A DNA stretch of 64,000 bases from Puniceicoccaceae bacterium Marseille-Q1082. Lineage in GTDB: Bacteria; Verrucomicrobiota; Verrucomicrobiia; Opitutales; Intestinicryptomonadaceae. Below, piece by piece: positions 14-4,535 of this stretch. The position numbers and the translations under genes are program-made. The notes beneath the pieces are model-generated. The model saw only the letters and a list, made by a program, of their open reading frames with translations. It did no database searches and had not been told where the DNA came from. The first letter of the stretch is position 1, and the number at the start of each line of letters is the position of its first letter. The stretch spans positions 733,010 to 797,009 of the forward strand of contig CAJGBI010000001.1 of the NCBI GenBank assembly GCA_904424815.1, given 5' to 3'.

Positions 14-427
14 TTATAATCCATCCCAAGATTTCTTTATATATTGAGATTTTACTCTTCCATCGTCTCCAAATATTAAGATTTGTAAATAAAACACTCG
101 TTTATGGGACCTGTAATTTACCCCCCAGCAGTTTGATTTGGAAACAAATTCGTTTTTTAGAATATCATCAGGTTTGTCAAAATACTTATAATTATCACCG
201 TTAATAGCAACTACAATTTTTGAAGTGCCATTATAGATAGATTTTATACCTCCAAGCTTTTTTGCTACATCTTCTTTGCTAAGGCCAACAAAAGATATTT
301 CTCCATCAGGATACCCCCAATCTATACCTGTATAACAATAATATGCAAGAAAAGATAAAAATGCCAACAAAATACATAGAAGTAATAGTGCACTGAACCT
401 CAGAATTATATTAATAGTTGATTTCAT
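14..427 (-). CDS. small membrane-anchored protein, candidate partner/immunity of the RHS tip upstream
   Basis: The 137-residue product has one strong hydrophobic segment (about residues 8-30) after a short basic start, then a polar domain that would face the periplasm. I do not recognise the family. The ATG lies 3 nt after the stop of the RHS tip gene, so the two are probably translationally coupled. This is the usual place for the cognate immunity gene of a polymorphic RHS toxin, but that role is inferred only from position. The sequence is AT-rich compared with the rest of the window. Confidence 0.6.
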   Translation of the reverse strand: MKSTINIILRFSALLLLCILLAFLSFLAYYCYTGIDWGYPDGEISFVGLSKEDVAKKLGGIKSIYNGTSKIVVAINGDNYKYFDKPDDILKNEFVSKSNCWGVNYRSHKRVFYLQILIFGDDGRVKSQYIKKSWDGL

Positions 428-430
428 AAC

Positions 431-1582
431 CTATTTTTCAAATAAATTACTTTTCATCCGATGTGACCAACCAATTGCATCCCAAGGTAATTTGGATGCA
501 TCAAAGTTTCCTCCAGCAATTTCAATTAACTGACTAAGTAGAGAATTGCAGTTTCCAAATTCAGATGATAGAGGTATGGCAGAGTATAGGCTCGAAGTTT
601 CATTAGAATTAAAATTATCCGCGGCATTTAAATATGCATTAACAAAATTCATATTTAAATTTATCGAACCATCTGCACCCGTTACGTTTCCACCTTTAAT
701 TCCCCCTGAATCAGCCGTATTATTATATGTTAGATCGATATAATAACCCATGCCAGCAGGTGAATTAAGATTCGGTACCATGGAATCGCTTTTATATCCG
801 CCGATTGATGAAGAATATGTCCCGTCTGAATTAGAATTAAATTTAGATTTTTGATCTGATGTTAATTGTGAATATTCATTTGAATTTACAGTCAATACAC
901 CGTATGTATGAGTTCCAGCAGGAGATCCGGAGAGTGGCCTCCCATAAACTTCCAAAGTCGCCAAACCCAAAGAATCAATTACTAATGTAGGTACCGCCGC
1001 ATAGAACTGGTTGTTGATACCGTCCGGATAGCCTGCGGGGTCGGAGGAGCGCCAGCGGGCGGTGGAGGCGTCGTAATTGCGGTACGGAAATACATACGCC
1101 TGTAAATCTTCATCGTAGGGCTTACCGGTAAAGCGTGCGGAACGGTCGTGCTGTATGCTCCCCTCGCCGAATATCGTTGTATCTTGGTAGTCCTTTACAA
1201 GATTTCCCTTGGTATCCATACTCCATAATGTCGTTCCCAAAAAGTCGTGCTCGTGGTAGCGCACGCCCTCGTCGGTTTTGCTTAGTATCGGAACTCCGCC
1301 CGATACATGAGGCTCATTCACATATATGTCGCTTCCTCGGCGGATTAACGCCAAGCCGTCCCATACCCACACTTCAGTGCTACCGTCGTGAAAAGTCTTT
1401 TGCGCAAGCATCCCAAACCCGTCGTACGCGAATTTTGTTATCTTCCCCCTGCGGTTTACCTCTATTACCTTATCCAAGTATCCGTATTTGTATTCTACGT
1501 CTATTTCCCCGTTGAGCTTCTCGGAAACAAGCCTCCCCGCCCTGTCGTAAAAGTATTCGCGCTTCCCTTCGGGAGAACTCAT
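431..1582 (-). CDS. headless RHS core fragment with variable C-terminal tip (cassette 1)
   Basis: The N-terminal ~215 residues are the end of an RHS/YD-repeat shell: YD-type motifs, then an ARFTGKPYDEDLQAYVFPYR-type core and a DP-GYPDG-NN-QFYA-PL/SLGLA boundary. The remaining ~170 residues are a unique tip containing a GNCNSLLSQLIEIAGG segment and ending in FEK. The frame stays open upstream to about 1672 (YKYTYDTANQLKE is readable) but has no signal peptide or shell there, so the gene lacks the ~1000 or more residues of a full RHS protein. The ATG used has its purine tract directly abutting it, so it may not be translated. It looks like an orphan tip cassette that could be recombined into a full RHS gene elsewhere. 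Confidence 0.7.
   Translation of the reverse strand: MSSPEGKREYFYDRAGRLVSEKLNGEIDVEYKYGYLDKVIEVNRRGKITKFAYDGFGMLAQKTFHDGSTEVWVWDGLALIRRGSDIYVNEPHVSGGVPILSKTDEGVRYHEHDFLGTTLWSMDTKGNLVKDYQDTTIFGEGSIQHDRSARFTGKPYDEDLQAYVFPYRNYDASTARWRSSDPAGYPDGINNQFYAAVPTLVIDSLGLATLEVYGRPLSGSPAGTHTYGVLTVNSNEYSQLTSDQKSKFNSNSDGTYSSSIGGYKSDSMVPNLNSPAGMGYYIDLTYNNTADSGGIKGGNVTGADGSINLNMNFVNAYLNAADNFNSNETSSLYSAIPLSSEFGNCNSLLSQLIEIAGGNFDASKLPWDAIGWSHRMKSNLFEK
1000..1426 (-). repeat. RHS core direct repeat, copy 1
   Basis: This stretch encodes the RHS core and is nearly identical to 2660-3086, at a constant offset of 1660 bp. Differences are scattered single bases, many at third codon positions. Similarity falls away on both sides, where the cassettes carry unrelated tips and different 5' ends. 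It is a plausible homologous-recombination arm for tip exchange. Confidence 0.85.
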
Positions 1583-1656
1583 CTCCTTTAACTGGTTTGC
1601 GGTATCGTATGTATATTTGTAAACCTTGTAATCTATATACAGGATGTATTTATATT

Positions 1657-2208
1657 TTATTTTATAATAAGACTATATAACCAATAATACTTCTTCCCTA
1701 TGTTATAACTCGATATATAAATTACGTTATTTTTTAAGTTATAATAAGGTCTATACTCAATACGTTCTAAATTCTCAAGATTTGTTCTTATTTTAAGATT
1801 GTATTTCCCTTGATCCTCGCTGATGACAATTTCCATGCTTATATCAGCAAATTGGATCATTGAAGTCGGTTGAACCTTAACAATATCTGCTAATATTGTT
1901 TTTTCATTTTCTTTGCTCATCAAAACCCAATAATGTCCCGAATATTTACTTGGAAGCCTACTGGACCATTGCAAGAGAAGCTTTTCATTGTATAAAATAT
2001 TCTCAACCGACTTTTGTTGCTCTTGCGATATATCCGATTTATTGTTTACCGCAAGTTGTATTGATGGCATATAACATAGTGTTTTTGTATCTATTTTGCT
2101 AAAAGATTCTATATTATTGTTGAAATTATCCAATAAACTATCTTCATTCCCATATATCAATGATACAATGCCGAAAAGACATATATATTGCATTATTATT
2201 CTTTTCAT
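1657..2208 (-). CDS. exported small protein, candidate partner/immunity of RHS tip 2
   Basis: The 183-residue protein has an N-terminal signal-peptide-like segment (MKRIIMQYICLFGIVSLIYG) and a Lys/Asn/Ile-rich mature part. Its ATG overlaps the TGA of the RHS tip gene upstream (ATGA), which implies translational coupling. No family is recognised. It is AT-rich. The position suggests immunity, but export is unusual for immunity to cytoplasmic nucleases; if it is immunity, the toxin may act in the periplasm. The stop codon falls inside the degenerate 5' end of the next RHS fragment. Confidence 0.6.
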   Translation of the reverse strand: MKRIIMQYICLFGIVSLIYGNEDSLLDNFNNNIESFSKIDTKTLCYMPSIQLAVNNKSDISQEQQKSVENILYNEKLLLQWSSRLPSKYSGHYWVLMSKENEKTILADIVKVQPTSMIQFADISMEIVISEDQGKYNLKIRTNLENLERIEYRPYYNLKNNVIYISSYNIGKKYYWLYSLIIK

Positions 2209-3071
2209 TTTTCTATTCCCTGTAATGTAAACGAAGAATATGCTGATTTACTTAAAATACTTGTATTTGTTCTTCCGTTATTTTGATATATAGTTATATT
2301 TGCTAAAAAAGTTTTAGTTCCATCTTCACTTCCATCCGCAGGAAAGGGAAATGGATAATTTAAGCCTAATGTCCACGTTTGAGTTAATGAATTCCCAAAA
2401 CCTAATGGAATATAATCTGATATAATCTTATCGCTACCCATTATTATGTTTCGACCATAAGAAAAAACATCTCCTCTTTCCCTTTCAGATTCAGATCTTG
2501 TTCCAGTTATAGTTACTATAGCACTCGATATAACTTTTACGAATTCACTCTTCCCAATTTCATATTGATAAATACTCTTATCTATTGGAATAACATTACT
2601 AAATGATATTGTAAATGAAGCTAATCCTAGAGGATCTGCGTTATAAGTAGGCACACAAGCATAGAATTGGTTATTTATGCCATCTGGATAACCTGCTGGG
2701 TCGGAGGAGCGCCAGCGAGCGGTGGAGGCGTCGTAATTGCGGTACGGGAATACATACGCTTGCAAGTCTTCGTCGTAAGGTTTGCCGGTAAAGCGCGCTG
2801 AGCGGTCTTTTTGGACGCTTCCTTCACCGAATATCGTTGTATCTTGGTAGTCCTTTACAAGATTTCCCTTGGTGTCGGTACTCCATAGGGTGGTTCCCAG
2901 AAAGTCGTGCTCATGGTAGCGTACCCCTTCGTCGGTTTTGCTTAGTATCGGAACTCCGCCCGATACATGCGGCTCATTCACATATATGTCACTTCCTCGG
3001 CGGATTAACGCCAAGCCGTCCCACACCCACACTTCAGTGCTCCCGTCGTGAAACGTCTTTTGCGCCAACAT
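2205..3071 (-). CDS. headless RHS core fragment with variable C-terminal tip (cassette 2)
   Basis: Residues 1-150 repeat the same RHS core as cassette 1 almost exactly, from MLAQKTFHDGSTEVWVWDGL to the NADPLGLA boundary. The ~138-residue tip after that is unrelated to tip 1 and ends in IEK. The frame is open upstream only to 3125, directly after the TAG of the preceding gene, with KYDGFG readable before the first ATG. There is no ribosome-binding site at that ATG and no export signal. The fragment is thus fused onto the end of the previous unit. I infer an orphan cassette rather than an intact toxin. Confidence 0.65.
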   Translation of the reverse strand: MLAQKTFHDGSTEVWVWDGLALIRRGSDIYVNEPHVSGGVPILSKTDEGVRYHEHDFLGTTLWSTDTKGNLVKDYQDTTIFGEGSVQKDRSARFTGKPYDEDLQAYVFPYRNYDASTARWRSSDPAGYPDGINNQFYACVPTYNADPLGLASFTISFSNVIPIDKSIYQYEIGKSEFVKVISSAIVTITGTRSESERERGDVFSYGRNIIMGSDKIISDYIPLGFGNSLTQTWTLGLNYPFPFPADGSEDGTKTFLANITIYQNNGRTNTSILSKSAYSSFTLQGIEK

Positions 3072-3086
3072 GCCAAAACCGTCGTA
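2660..3086 (-). repeat. RHS core direct repeat, copy 2
   Basis: Second copy of the repeat at 1000-1426, collinear over about 427 bp with only scattered substitutions. Recombination between the copies would delete tip 2 and its partner gene, or swap tips. Confidence 0.85.
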
Positions 3087-3125
3087 TTTTATTCTTATAT
3101 GCGGTTTGTAAGATAAAAAACCGTA

Positions 3126-3620
3126 CTAGTCAAATTTAACAAAAGAAATGAATTTAGGGTTTGTGTTAAACCGTGATATAGAGGAGGACCAACCGAGTAA
3201 ATTTATATCATTTTTCTTCAATTTTACAATAGTGTTTAGCTCATAATAATCAAGTAGTATTCCATCTTTTTTTTCATAAAAATAAATATATACATTTAGC
3301 ATGTTGGAACTTGTATTAAATTTTCCTTTAATAGACACAACATTCTCATTTGAATATATCTTTCTATCTCTAAACTCGCTTTTACTTATTGGATAATACA
3401 ATACCACCTTATAACTTGAACTCTTATCATCCCATTTTAAAAGTATAATTTTATTTATATCTTTATTTTCTTGTGTTTCTATTGGGAAATTTATCTTTGA
3501 GATAATTGATATGCAATTATCCACTTTGTCTCTTAAGTTATCATTCTCGTTTGGAAATAATCCAAACGGAAATGTTAAAATTAATATAAAAAAACTAAGG
3601 ATTCTAAATATATTATTCAT
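3126..3620 (-). CDS. exported small protein, partner of the third cassette
   Basis: The 164-residue protein has a strong signal peptide (MNNIFRILSFFILILTFPFG), then a polar Lys/Ser/Asn-rich domain. Its start is 3 nt past the stop of the short secreted gene upstream, the same spacing as in the two RHS cassettes. I do not recognise the family. General build (signal peptide, similar size, AT-rich) matches the 183-residue protein of cassette 2, but I see no convincing sequence similarity. A role as immunity protein is inferred from position only. Confidence 0.55.
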   Translation of the reverse strand: MNNIFRILSFFILILTFPFGLFPNENDNLRDKVDNCISIISKINFPIETQENKDINKIILLKWDDKSSSYKVVLYYPISKSEFRDRKIYSNENVVSIKGKFNTSSNMLNVYIYFYEKKDGILLDYYELNTIVKLKKNDINLLGWSSSISRFNTNPKFISFVKFD

Positions 3621-3623
3621 ATC

Positions 3624-3950
3624 TTATTTCTCAACTGTTACTGAAAATACCCCAGTTGCATTATATCCCGATATTGAAAAAGAATGTGTATAAGAACCAA
3701 CTCCAACCCTTGTAGTTATTCCACGCTCTTTGTCTTTTGACGTAAATACGCTCTCCTTTGGCAGCTCAAACTCCGATATCTTTTGCCCCTTTATCGCGTC
3801 GTCTATGATTTTACCAACTTCGCTTGATTCCGTGGCATTTCGCGCACGCTGCTCTTCAAGCGTCTCACGTATGAATCTTTCTACCTCGCCTCCGTGTGCG
3901 CACAGCGCAAACAGTGTTAACAATATTACGCTTGATAGAGACGTTTTCAT
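3624..3950 (-). CDS. short secreted protein in the tip position of a third cassette
   Basis: The preferred ATG at 3950 gives 108 residues with a signal peptide (MKTSLSSVILLTLFALCAHG); an in-frame start at 3980 would put ten polar residues in front and is less likely. The mature part begins Glu/Arg-rich (EVERFIRETLEEQRARNATE) and ends with a Ser/Thr/Val-rich segment finishing VEK. Both RHS tips also end in -EK and are followed at once by an exported small protein. It may be what is left of an RHS gene whose shell was deleted, joining signal peptide to tip, or a small effector of its own. Confidence 0.5.
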   Translation of the reverse strand: MKTSLSSVILLTLFALCAHGGEVERFIRETLEEQRARNATESSEVGKIIDDAIKGQKISEFELPKESVFTSKDKERGITTRVGVGSYTHSFSISGYNATGVFSVTVEK

Positions 3951-4046
3951 GGCGTGTCTCATTTGAACACGGTTTATCATAAGCGCTTGATTAAATATGT
4001 CAATAAATTTCTTGAAAACTCCTCAAGCGTTGTTAAGATAATTTAT

Positions 4047-4535
4047 ATGATGATATTAGTACTTGTATTAATTTTTGTCCTGACAACGCATTTGAATGCT
4101 GCGCCTTCACGGGAGTCTCCTACATTGCATAACGAGCAACTAAGAATAGACGGGCAATTATTTAAAAGATTTGGACTCGCATGTTAAACGGCTCTCCGGA
4201 GTTTAAATTTCCAATATACATGGAACACAACATATCAAAATATCAATTCGGTGAATTTGAAAGGTTTTCGCAATGGTGTGTGCCATGCAGACGGAAAAAA
4301 ATACGAACTTTTGTCGGCAAAGTATGACGGGTTAAAGCGGCTTATTTCCCTAAACATAGGCCCGCTATGGCGCGAATTTAAATGCGACGGCGAATCGGAG
4401 ATTCTGACTTCATGGAGACCTCTAAAAGAACGCGAAACTGTATTCGCATACAGAAACGGAATGATATACGCGATTGCCCGCCCCACAATGCCGACTGGGA
4501 AACCTGCATTTTTATTTATTCGCACGCATATATAA
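4047..4535 (+). pseudogene. degenerate gene for a small secreted protein (two frameshifts)
   Basis: A signal peptide starts at 4047 (MMILVLVLIFVLTTHLNA) and runs to a stop at 4185-4187. Coding continues in a second frame (LNGSPEFKFPIYMEHN, about 4184-4275) and then in a third to 4535 (ADGKKYELLSAKYDGLKRL ... PTGKPAFLFIRTHI). Read together the three pieces make one plausible exported protein of about 160 residues. No family is recognised. Alternatively 4251-4535 could be a small intact gene starting at GTG 4251. Two indels or sequencing errors would both explain it. Confidence 0.4.

What the first reader, a model, noticed from the sequence alone, without database searches (positions are those of the whole stretch)
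431..3950. Tandem array of RHS tip cassettes with coupled exported partner genes
Three units follow one another on the minus strand. Two are headless RHS core fragments sharing an almost identical core but carrying unrelated tips; each is followed at -4 or +3 nt by a small exported or membrane protein. The third is a short secreted protein with the same partner arrangement. Orphan RHS tip/immunity cassettes are established for RHS and CDI loci. What is unusual here is that all three partners have export signals and no full-length RHS gene is in view. The array may be a bank of silent tips.
Basis: partly seen in the sequence, partly recalled or inferred. Interest (0 to 1): 0.72.

Follow-up and report, generated by a model that had tools for sequence, protein, structure and literature searches.

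The report
Displaced RHS tips with immunity bank
A bacterium of the Verrucomicrobia group keeps a row of detached toxin ends, some broken, followed by genes that probably protect against them, and the otherwise unrelated toxin ends of this protein lineage mostly finish with the same amino acid.

Summary
The array is real and longer than reported. Two headless RHS cores in the window (97% aa) and a third just left of it (94% aa) carry unrelated tips. Six more small ORFs with exported-type N-termini follow left of the window, among core scraps and a decayed tip. The 'short secreted protein' is the head of a short secreted RHS without its core. I count nine open partner ORFs and three open tips, none attached to a head. 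Best reading: displaced tip cassettes whose toxins decay while exported immunity genes stay. That is a known kind (Rhs C-terminal displacement, orphan immunity), here in a genus without a detected T6SS sheath gene. Exported partners are the rule: 75 of 95 in this core lineage, 56 of 88 for other RHS of the phylum, background 85 of 257. New: unrelated tips of this lineage end in glutamate, 84 of 99, against 30 of 490 other ORFs and 7 of 98 canonical RHS tips; so do 7 of 7 tips found later. My paper searches listed no report of this tail. It may be a delivery or sorting tag; its role is unknown.

The parts
14..427 (-). P1, 137 aa membrane-anchored/exported partner of tip 1
   Evidence: ORF at +3 nt from tip 1; hydrophobic N-terminus; 31% solitary relative at C2:665330-665704
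431..1582 (-). headless RHS core + tip 1 (frame open to about 1636, YD repeats included)
   Evidence: Rhs_assc_core 42.3 bits; core 986-1414; no signal peptide seen
434..961 (-). tip 1; relatives in two Lentisphaerota loci; ends Phe-Glu-Lys
   Evidence: cluster with L102 and L123 tips; resemblance to the L155 tip noted by eye and then aligned; end
1657..2208 (-). P2, 183 aa exported partner of tip 2; orphan relatives elsewhere in the genome and in G003, and a relative after a broken tip in G009
2205..3071 (-). headless RHS core + tip 2
   Evidence: Rhs_assc_core 43.8 bits; core 2646-3074
2208..2621 (-). tip 2; ends Ile-Glu-Lys; a decayed relative lies further along the array
3126..3620 (-). 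P3, 164 aa exported partner whose tip is reduced to a stub
3624..3980 (-). head (signal peptide + linker) of a short secreted RHS; core missing, joined to what looks like a tip stub ending Val-Glu-Lys
   Evidence: 35.6% identity over 59 aa to the short RHS at C1:308; heads of the same type in G002, G004, G005, G009, G016
4008..4487 (+). broken N-terminal piece of a divergently transcribed larger RHS gene
   Evidence: three tblastn segments in two frames to the N-terminal RHS gene of C1:308; a longer gene (854 aa) stands in the same divergent layout in G004

Best explanation
The row is an RHS polymorphic-toxin locus after repeated C-terminal displacement. Incoming cassettes [3' end of the core + toxin tip + immunity gene] recombined in at the core and pushed older tip/immunity pairs downstream, each preceded by a partial core copy (shown: direct core repeats with different 5' ends, unrelated tips, one coupled partner each; inferred: the recombination). 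Displaced tips have no signal peptide or head, so they are probably not exported and are free to decay (inferred). The partner genes keep open frames with exported-type N-termini (shown) and would protect the envelope against tips carried by related strains (inferred). The long proteins of this lineage mostly have a signal peptide, and the genus has no detected T6SS sheath gene, so the toxins probably pass through the periplasm; that would explain why the partners are exported (inferred). Tips of this core lineage also share a C-terminal glutamate tail (shown), most simply a tag used in delivery, sorting or processing (inferred).
For: Tandem cores 94-97% aa identical with unrelated tips; synonymous divergence 0.71-0.81 with dN/dS 0.03-0.05, so the copies probably evolved under constraint in separate working genes before they met here. 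Core scraps between orphan partners at C1:731135-731185, 730404-730518 and 728739-728930, and a decayed tip-2 relative before an open partner. Nine open partner ORFs against three open tips. In G009 a head runs out of frame into tip 2 with the core gone, yet the pieces of the partner are 98.5-99.0% identical in DNA to the G000 orphan, while the PaaK-like protein is 70% identical. G003, with no related RHS core detected, holds the same partner at 98.8% DNA. Same-tip pairs share partner clusters in 8 of 45 cases, shuffled mean 0.13, 0 of 2000 shuffles reaching 8. Signal peptide in 12 of 19 long heads. No VipB match in 14 of 14 genus genomes. Glu tail. Published mechanism: PMC2935791 (abstract and one section), PMC5361080 (passages).
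Against: No toxicity or protection was tested. Tips 1-3 have no significant Pfam match and no structure could be predicted. No intact head with this core was found in the genome: the C2 gene has an in-frame stop after its signal peptide and the C1:308 gene one in its core, which could also be assembly errors. Counting open partners is biased, since a broken partner is hard to recognise; one scrap between C1:729425 and 729537 may be one, and in the near-identical contig L053 the last partner is truncated and another replaced. Two of the nine partners (C1:730560-731135, 729537-730154) fail the crude export rule, though by eye they look like signal peptides. The array partners P1, P3, B, C, D and E have no match in the other 18 family genomes searched, so selection on them could not be measured; the only pair tested has saturated dS (2.56). 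37 of 45 same-tip pairs do not share a partner cluster.
Confidence: 0.8

Rival explanations
1. The row is an archive of silent tips kept for use: recombination at the core re-attaches a stored tip to an intact head, changing the toxin a strain shows.
For: Core repeats of about 400 bp at 87-89% DNA identity leave room for recombination; 3 tips are open frames; a short RHS in G002 with unbroken head and core carries a different, short tip.
Against: No intact head with this core was found in the genome; tips are fewer and more decayed than partners.
Confidence: 0.25
2. The row is plain debris of a dying RHS locus; open frames are remnants that have not yet decayed.
For: Head, core and large-RHS pieces are broken; a near-identical contig has deletions in the same row, a replaced partner and a truncated last partner.
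Against: Nine open partners against three open tips; an orphan partner kept at 98.8% DNA between species whose PaaK-like protein is 82% identical; dN/dS 0.125 between P2 and its orphan relative, though saturated.
Confidence: 0.15
3. The exported partners are not immunity proteins but export helpers or anchors of the RHS proteins.
For: They are mostly exported and lie next to the tips (75 of 95).
Against: They are as diverse as the tips (87 clusters among 101) and follow the tip type more than chance (8 of 45, shuffled mean 0.13); a common helper would be conserved.
Confidence: 0.08
4. The terminal glutamate is a by-product of the start signal of the partner gene (codon GAR next to the stop) and not a protein tag.
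For: Many tips overlap or abut their partner's start.
Against: A final Glu is there at every spacing: 31 of 38 overlapping, 29 of 32 at 0-15 nt, 19 of 24 further, 5 of 5 without a partner ORF (35, 30, 20 and 5 for the last two places), with all three stop codons and GAA or GAG; canonical RHS tips, also followed by partners, end in Glu in 7 of 98.
Confidence: 0.05

Closest known systems
Rhs C-terminal displacement arrays of Enterobacteriaceae (Jackson et al. 2009, PMC2935791; abstract and section 'Displacement of C-terminal tips' read)
   Same: Headless fragments with near-identical core protein and unrelated tips in tandem, progressive decay (there 91.6% aa in Serratia, identical in E. coli; here 94-97% aa).
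   Different: Here each tip has a coupled exported partner, orphan partners outnumber tips, no intact parent gene heads the row, and tips end in Glu. Silent sites of the cores differ by 0.7-0.8; the section I read gives no such figure.
Orphan immunity arrays by sequential effector displacement in Vibrio cholerae T6SS (Kirchberger et al. 2017, PMC5361080; passages read)
   Same: New effector-immunity modules displace old effectors; immunity genes stay behind in a 3' array and move horizontally.
   Different: RHS core cassettes; no T6SS sheath gene detected in the genus; partners carry exported-type N-termini.
Orphan Rhs immunity in Serratia (PMC10539506; passages read) and Bacteroidales interbacterial-defence genes (PMC10470768, PMC12247911; search listings only)
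   Same: Standalone immunity genes; in Serratia an orphan Rhs immunity protein was shown to protect.
   Different: T6SS-delivered toxins; function is not tested here.
VgrG2b/Tpe1 metallopeptidase effectors with exported immunity (PMC6899460; passages read)
   Same: Zinc metallopeptidase toxin acting in the periplasm with a signal-peptide, lipoprotein or membrane-anchored immunity protein, as a model for the M91 tips with exported partners seen here.
   Different: T6SS delivery; I did not test homology between VgrG2b and the M91 tips, and tips 1-3 of the window are not M91.
TANFOR polymorphic toxins of Bacteroidetes (PMC7073777; passages read)
   Same: Sec signal on about 87% of the toxins; a two-step export route is proposed there.
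   Different: Different N-terminal domain; there T9SS is proposed, whose usual substrates carry a C-terminal domain; the one-residue tail here is not that domain.

Membership tests
RHS polymorphic toxins | Rhs-associated core domain and YD repeats | tested here: met
   TIGR03696 42.3 and 43.8 bits, cut-off 32.5; PF05593 28 bits, cut-off 22, in unit 1
RHS polymorphic toxins | variable C-terminal toxin domain followed by a cognate immunity gene | tested here: inconclusive
   Variable tips and coupled partners are shown; toxicity and neutralisation are not
Displaced Rhs tip arrays (Jackson 2009) | tandem direct repeats of the core 3' end with unrelated tips | tested here: met
Displaced Rhs tip arrays (Jackson 2009) | an intact parent rhs gene with the same core upstream | tested here: not met
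   Only a core-less head stands upstream; the nearest core with an unbroken head is in G002, 73%
Orphan immunity arrays | immunity-type genes without their toxin next to toxin loci | tested here: met
   C1:731139-731675, 730560-731135, 729537-730154, 728988-729425, 728264-728683; immunity role itself inferred
Orphan immunity arrays | protection against a foreign toxin | not testable with these tools
   needs a bench test
T6SS-delivered Rhs effectors | T6SS sheath/baseplate genes in the genome | tested here: not met
   VipB PF05943 in 0 of 14 genus genomes, positive in the E. coli control; other T6SS genes were not searched
Recombinase-associated defence islands | site-specific recombinase at the island | tested here: inconclusive
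   Recombinase-like ORF, read by eye, only at the sister locus C1:308

The most novel reading that the evidence does not exclude
The C-terminal glutamate (often hydrophobic-x-Glu at the very end; hydrophobic-Glu-Lys/Arg in the window's branch) is a portable tag that a so far undescribed, T6SS-independent RHS delivery route of Verrucomicrobiota and Lentisphaerota reads on any tip. Tips that join this core lineage gain it. The row in the window would be the immunity record of past attacks by this route.
Probability: 0.4. Interest if true: 0.85.

Novelty: new variant of a known kind. Interest (0 to 1): 0.6.

Why it matters
The array extends Rhs tip displacement and orphan immunity to a Verrucomicrobiota genus without a detected T6SS sheath gene, with the immunity side probably in the envelope. 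The 2012 survey of polymorphic toxins (PMC3482391, passages) says all but a few known immunity proteins are cytoplasmic; here 75 of 95 partners have exported-type N-termini, which points to toxins that pass through or act in the periplasm. One C-terminal residue shared across unrelated tips (last residue in 58 of 68 clusters; last two places in 62 of 68), yet rare in canonical RHS tips of the same phylum (7 of 98), is a sharp and cheap handle on how these proteins are delivered: one codon can be changed and the effect on secretion, cleavage and killing measured.

Tried and rejected
Rejected: that the array is closed within the window (it runs on). That exported partners are peculiar to this locus or this core lineage (canonical RHS 56 of 88). 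That Glu tails come from codon or coupling effects. That the window protein 3624-3980 is an independent secreted gene. Led nowhere: Pfam and NCBIfam on the window's tips and partners gave nothing significant beyond RHS domains; Pfam on 90 tips gave 12 families, only Peptidase_M91 in more than one tip (4 of 90); NCBIfam on 90 tips gave six single matches, best XopG at 2.6e-5; PDB sequence search with the tip-1 profile gave one match at E 0.22; a search for a shared neighbour gene of long RHS genes gave mostly what look like shadow frames and host genes and no clear delivery partner; the plasmid search gave 22 distant RHS records that I did not follow.

Limits: the export test is a crude hydrophobicity rule that takes any start in range. 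Its background is ORFs at least 150 aa long lying over 3 kb from cores, while partners may be 80 aa or longer and are simply the longest ORF in range. By eye it missed signal peptides such as those in L039 and L126. The 99 tips come from 102 after dropping three under 60 aa; four belong to weakly similar cores (L044 three, L168) and none of these ends in Glu, so without them it is 84 of 95. Tips from one genome are not independent, and two or three of the seven later tips come from one genome (L242 and L262, both G266). Own-genome exceptions are the two M91 tips. 'PaaK', 'ACT' and the recombinase are names given by eye. The 98 canonical tips come from the best-scoring loci and stretches that I picked, 48 of them from one genome. 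The 'headless' count includes some frames cut by contig ends.

Full report
Observation. The window is C1:733010-797009 of a 2.70 Mb genome in 3 contigs. Its closest named relatives in the genome scan are Opitutales MAGs, so it is taken to be Verrucomicrobiota; more distant matches are Lentisphaerota, Kiritimatiellae and Victivallis. Its habitat is not known to me. The cores of the two headless units are 97% identical over 143 aa and 88.8% in DNA, and both pass the Rhs_assc_core cut-off. Other RHS loci of the genome match this core at 70% (C1:308) and 40-47% (C2:261-265).

Extent. Left of the window a third core (94%) with a third unrelated tip and a lipoprotein-like partner follows at once. 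After it come five more small ORFs with lipoprotein-, signal-peptide- or membrane-like N-termini down to C1:728264. Of the nine partner ORFs of the row, seven pass the crude export rule and two fail it though they look like signal peptides by eye. Between them lie scraps of core at C1:731135-731185, 730404-730518 and 728739-728930, the last of the C2 type. In front of the open partner at C1:729537-730154 the reading frames show a decayed end of a tip-2 relative, which a profile search also finds (residues 103-143, E 0.0019). In all I count nine open partner ORFs against three open tips. This count is biased, because a broken partner is harder to recognise than a broken core; one scrap near C1:729,500 may be such a piece. 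The order is head stub, tip 2, tip 1, tip 3, then orphans.

Heads. G002 has a relative with unbroken head and core (core 73%), whose tip frame ends after 74 aa. On the other strand at 4008-4487 lies a frameshifted N-terminal piece of a second, divergent RHS gene; G004 has the same divergent layout with an 854-aa RHS. No intact secreted RHS gene was found in the genome: the C2 gene has a stop between its signal peptide and the rest, the C1:308 gene a stop in its core. Sequencing error cannot be excluded for these.

Origin of the copies. Core pairs differ at synonymous sites by 0.71-0.81 with dN/dS 0.03-0.05. Copies made in place would be expected to be nearly identical or to drift freely; these probably evolved under constraint elsewhere before they were brought together. 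The differing 5' ends and the common 3' junction fit insertion by recombination within the core, as proposed for Enterobacteriaceae (PMC2935791, abstract and section on displacement).

Turnover and transfer. A contig in bin G012 is 99.5% identical in DNA over 2742 bp to the flank of this array (PaaK-like protein 100%) but differs in array content and has deletions, one of which truncates the last lipoprotein gene. The bin also holds an 83% copy of the PaaK-like protein, so it is probably mixed. In the other fetched flanks of this site (L054-L062, nine loci of 3.7 to 19.5 kb) the three flank genes match, except that one was not found in L062, and no array gene was found within the stretches held. 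The P2 relative at C1:306 has no room for a tip upstream. G003, in which no related RHS core was detected, holds it at 98.8% DNA over 566 bp among several small ORFs that look exported by eye, while the PaaK-like protein is 82% identical. G009 holds it at 98.5-99.0% DNA in two contig ends (PaaK-like protein 70%), after a head that runs out of frame into tip 2 with the core missing. The toxin side breaks, the partner side stays. Against this stand the truncated and replaced partners of L053.

Partners. In 71 loci from the genome scan plus five own or related loci, 102 tips with a complete core end were read. Of 95 with a next ORF, 75 have an exported-type N-terminus, against 85 of 257 background ORFs (Fisher p 1.2e-14). 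Canonical RHS tips of the same phylum give 56 of 88 (8 more without an ORF, 2 near an end). So exported partners are the habit of the phylum and only somewhat more frequent here (p 0.03). Pairs of tips of one cluster share a partner cluster in 8 of 45 cases, against 0.13 by shuffling. Long RHS heads of this lineage have a signal peptide near a start codon in 12 of 19 cases, and VipB has no match in 14 of 14 genus genomes. A periplasmic route fits both facts. M91-type metallopeptidase tips with exported partners occur in the same genome; an analogous pair, VgrG2b with its exported immunity protein, acts in the periplasm (PMC6899460, passages). The 2012 survey (PMC3482391, passages) describes immunity proteins as cytoplasmic with few exceptions.

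The glutamate tail. Aligning 90 tips (mean column identity 5%) left one invariant Gly column, which I did not pursue, and one near-invariant column, a Glu at the end. Of 99 tips of at least 60 aa, 84 end in Glu and 90 have it in the last two places; in the window's branch it is Phe/Ile/Val-Glu-Lys/Arg (own-genome ends). Without four tips of weakly similar cores it is 84 of 95. Other ORFs of the same loci: 30 of 490 (last) and 61 of 490 (last two); partners: 6 of 101. One vote per tip cluster: 58 of 68 by the last residue, 62 of 68 by the last two places in at least one member, 60 of 68 in all members. Tips with under 150 aa before the core give 47 of 52 and tips of long genes 25 of 27, counted over the last two places. 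A hydrophobic residue two before the final Glu is seen in 60 of 99 against 10 of 490. The tail is present at every partner spacing and with all three stop codons. Canonical cores of the phylum: 4 of 50 and 3 of 48 end in Glu, 14 of 98 have it in the last two places. Of 6 pairs of tip homologues across the two sets one was dropped because it involves a distant core (L168); in the other 5 (4 canonical tips) the member of this lineage ends in Glu and the canonical one does not. A later search gave 54 tips; 47 were already in the first set, and 7 of the 7 others end in Glu (binomial 3e-9 against the background rate, not all from different genomes). The exceptions include both M91 tips of this genome. 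Seven paper searches, of which 62 and 88 asked about C-terminal features, listed no report of such a tail in the titles and abstract starts shown; most subscription papers are not held.

Verdict. The array is a displaced-tip and orphan-immunity row, a known kind in a new setting. The tail shared by the tips is the unexpected part. Shown: array anatomy, decay pattern, transfer, pairing, export statistics, tail statistics. Inferred: toxicity, immunity, silence of headless tips, route of delivery, role of the tail.

Noticed in passing
window:434-442, 2208-2216 and tips of loci L098-L168: Unrelated tips of this RHS core lineage share a C-terminal Glu (84 of 99), rare in canonical RHS tips (7 of 98).
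   Followed up: yes
L199-L201 and L204 (G165:C1:480001-540000, 580001-600000) and L205: Another genome of the phylum carries dozens of headless canonical RHS cassettes in several runs on one contig; 48 distinct tips were read, 31 of 43 with a next ORF of exported type.
   Followed up: partly
L063:9595-14234 (G003): Run of small ORFs that look exported or lipoprotein-like by eye, in a genome without a detected related RHS core; looks like a free-standing immunity island.
   Followed up: partly
L094:7304-7738 (C2:665303-665737): A solitary chromosomal relative of partner P1 (31%), with no RHS query match in the 14 kb stretch; perhaps the ancestor of an immunity family.
   Followed up: no
L093:3054-3968 (G017): Two adjacent ORFs related to the last two orphan partners of the array (21% at E 0.006, and 33%), in another genus and with no RHS query match on that contig.
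   Followed up: no
L010:9686-13115: At the sister RHS locus, a recombinase-like and a transposase-like ORF (read by eye) follow the divergent RHS head.
   Followed up: no
window:4609-5577: Pentapeptide_2 repeat protein (86.6 bits) next to the array, on the other strand.
   Followed up: no
G012: The bin holds a contig nearly identical to the window's genome besides another copy of the same gene, so it is probably mixed.
   Followed up: partly
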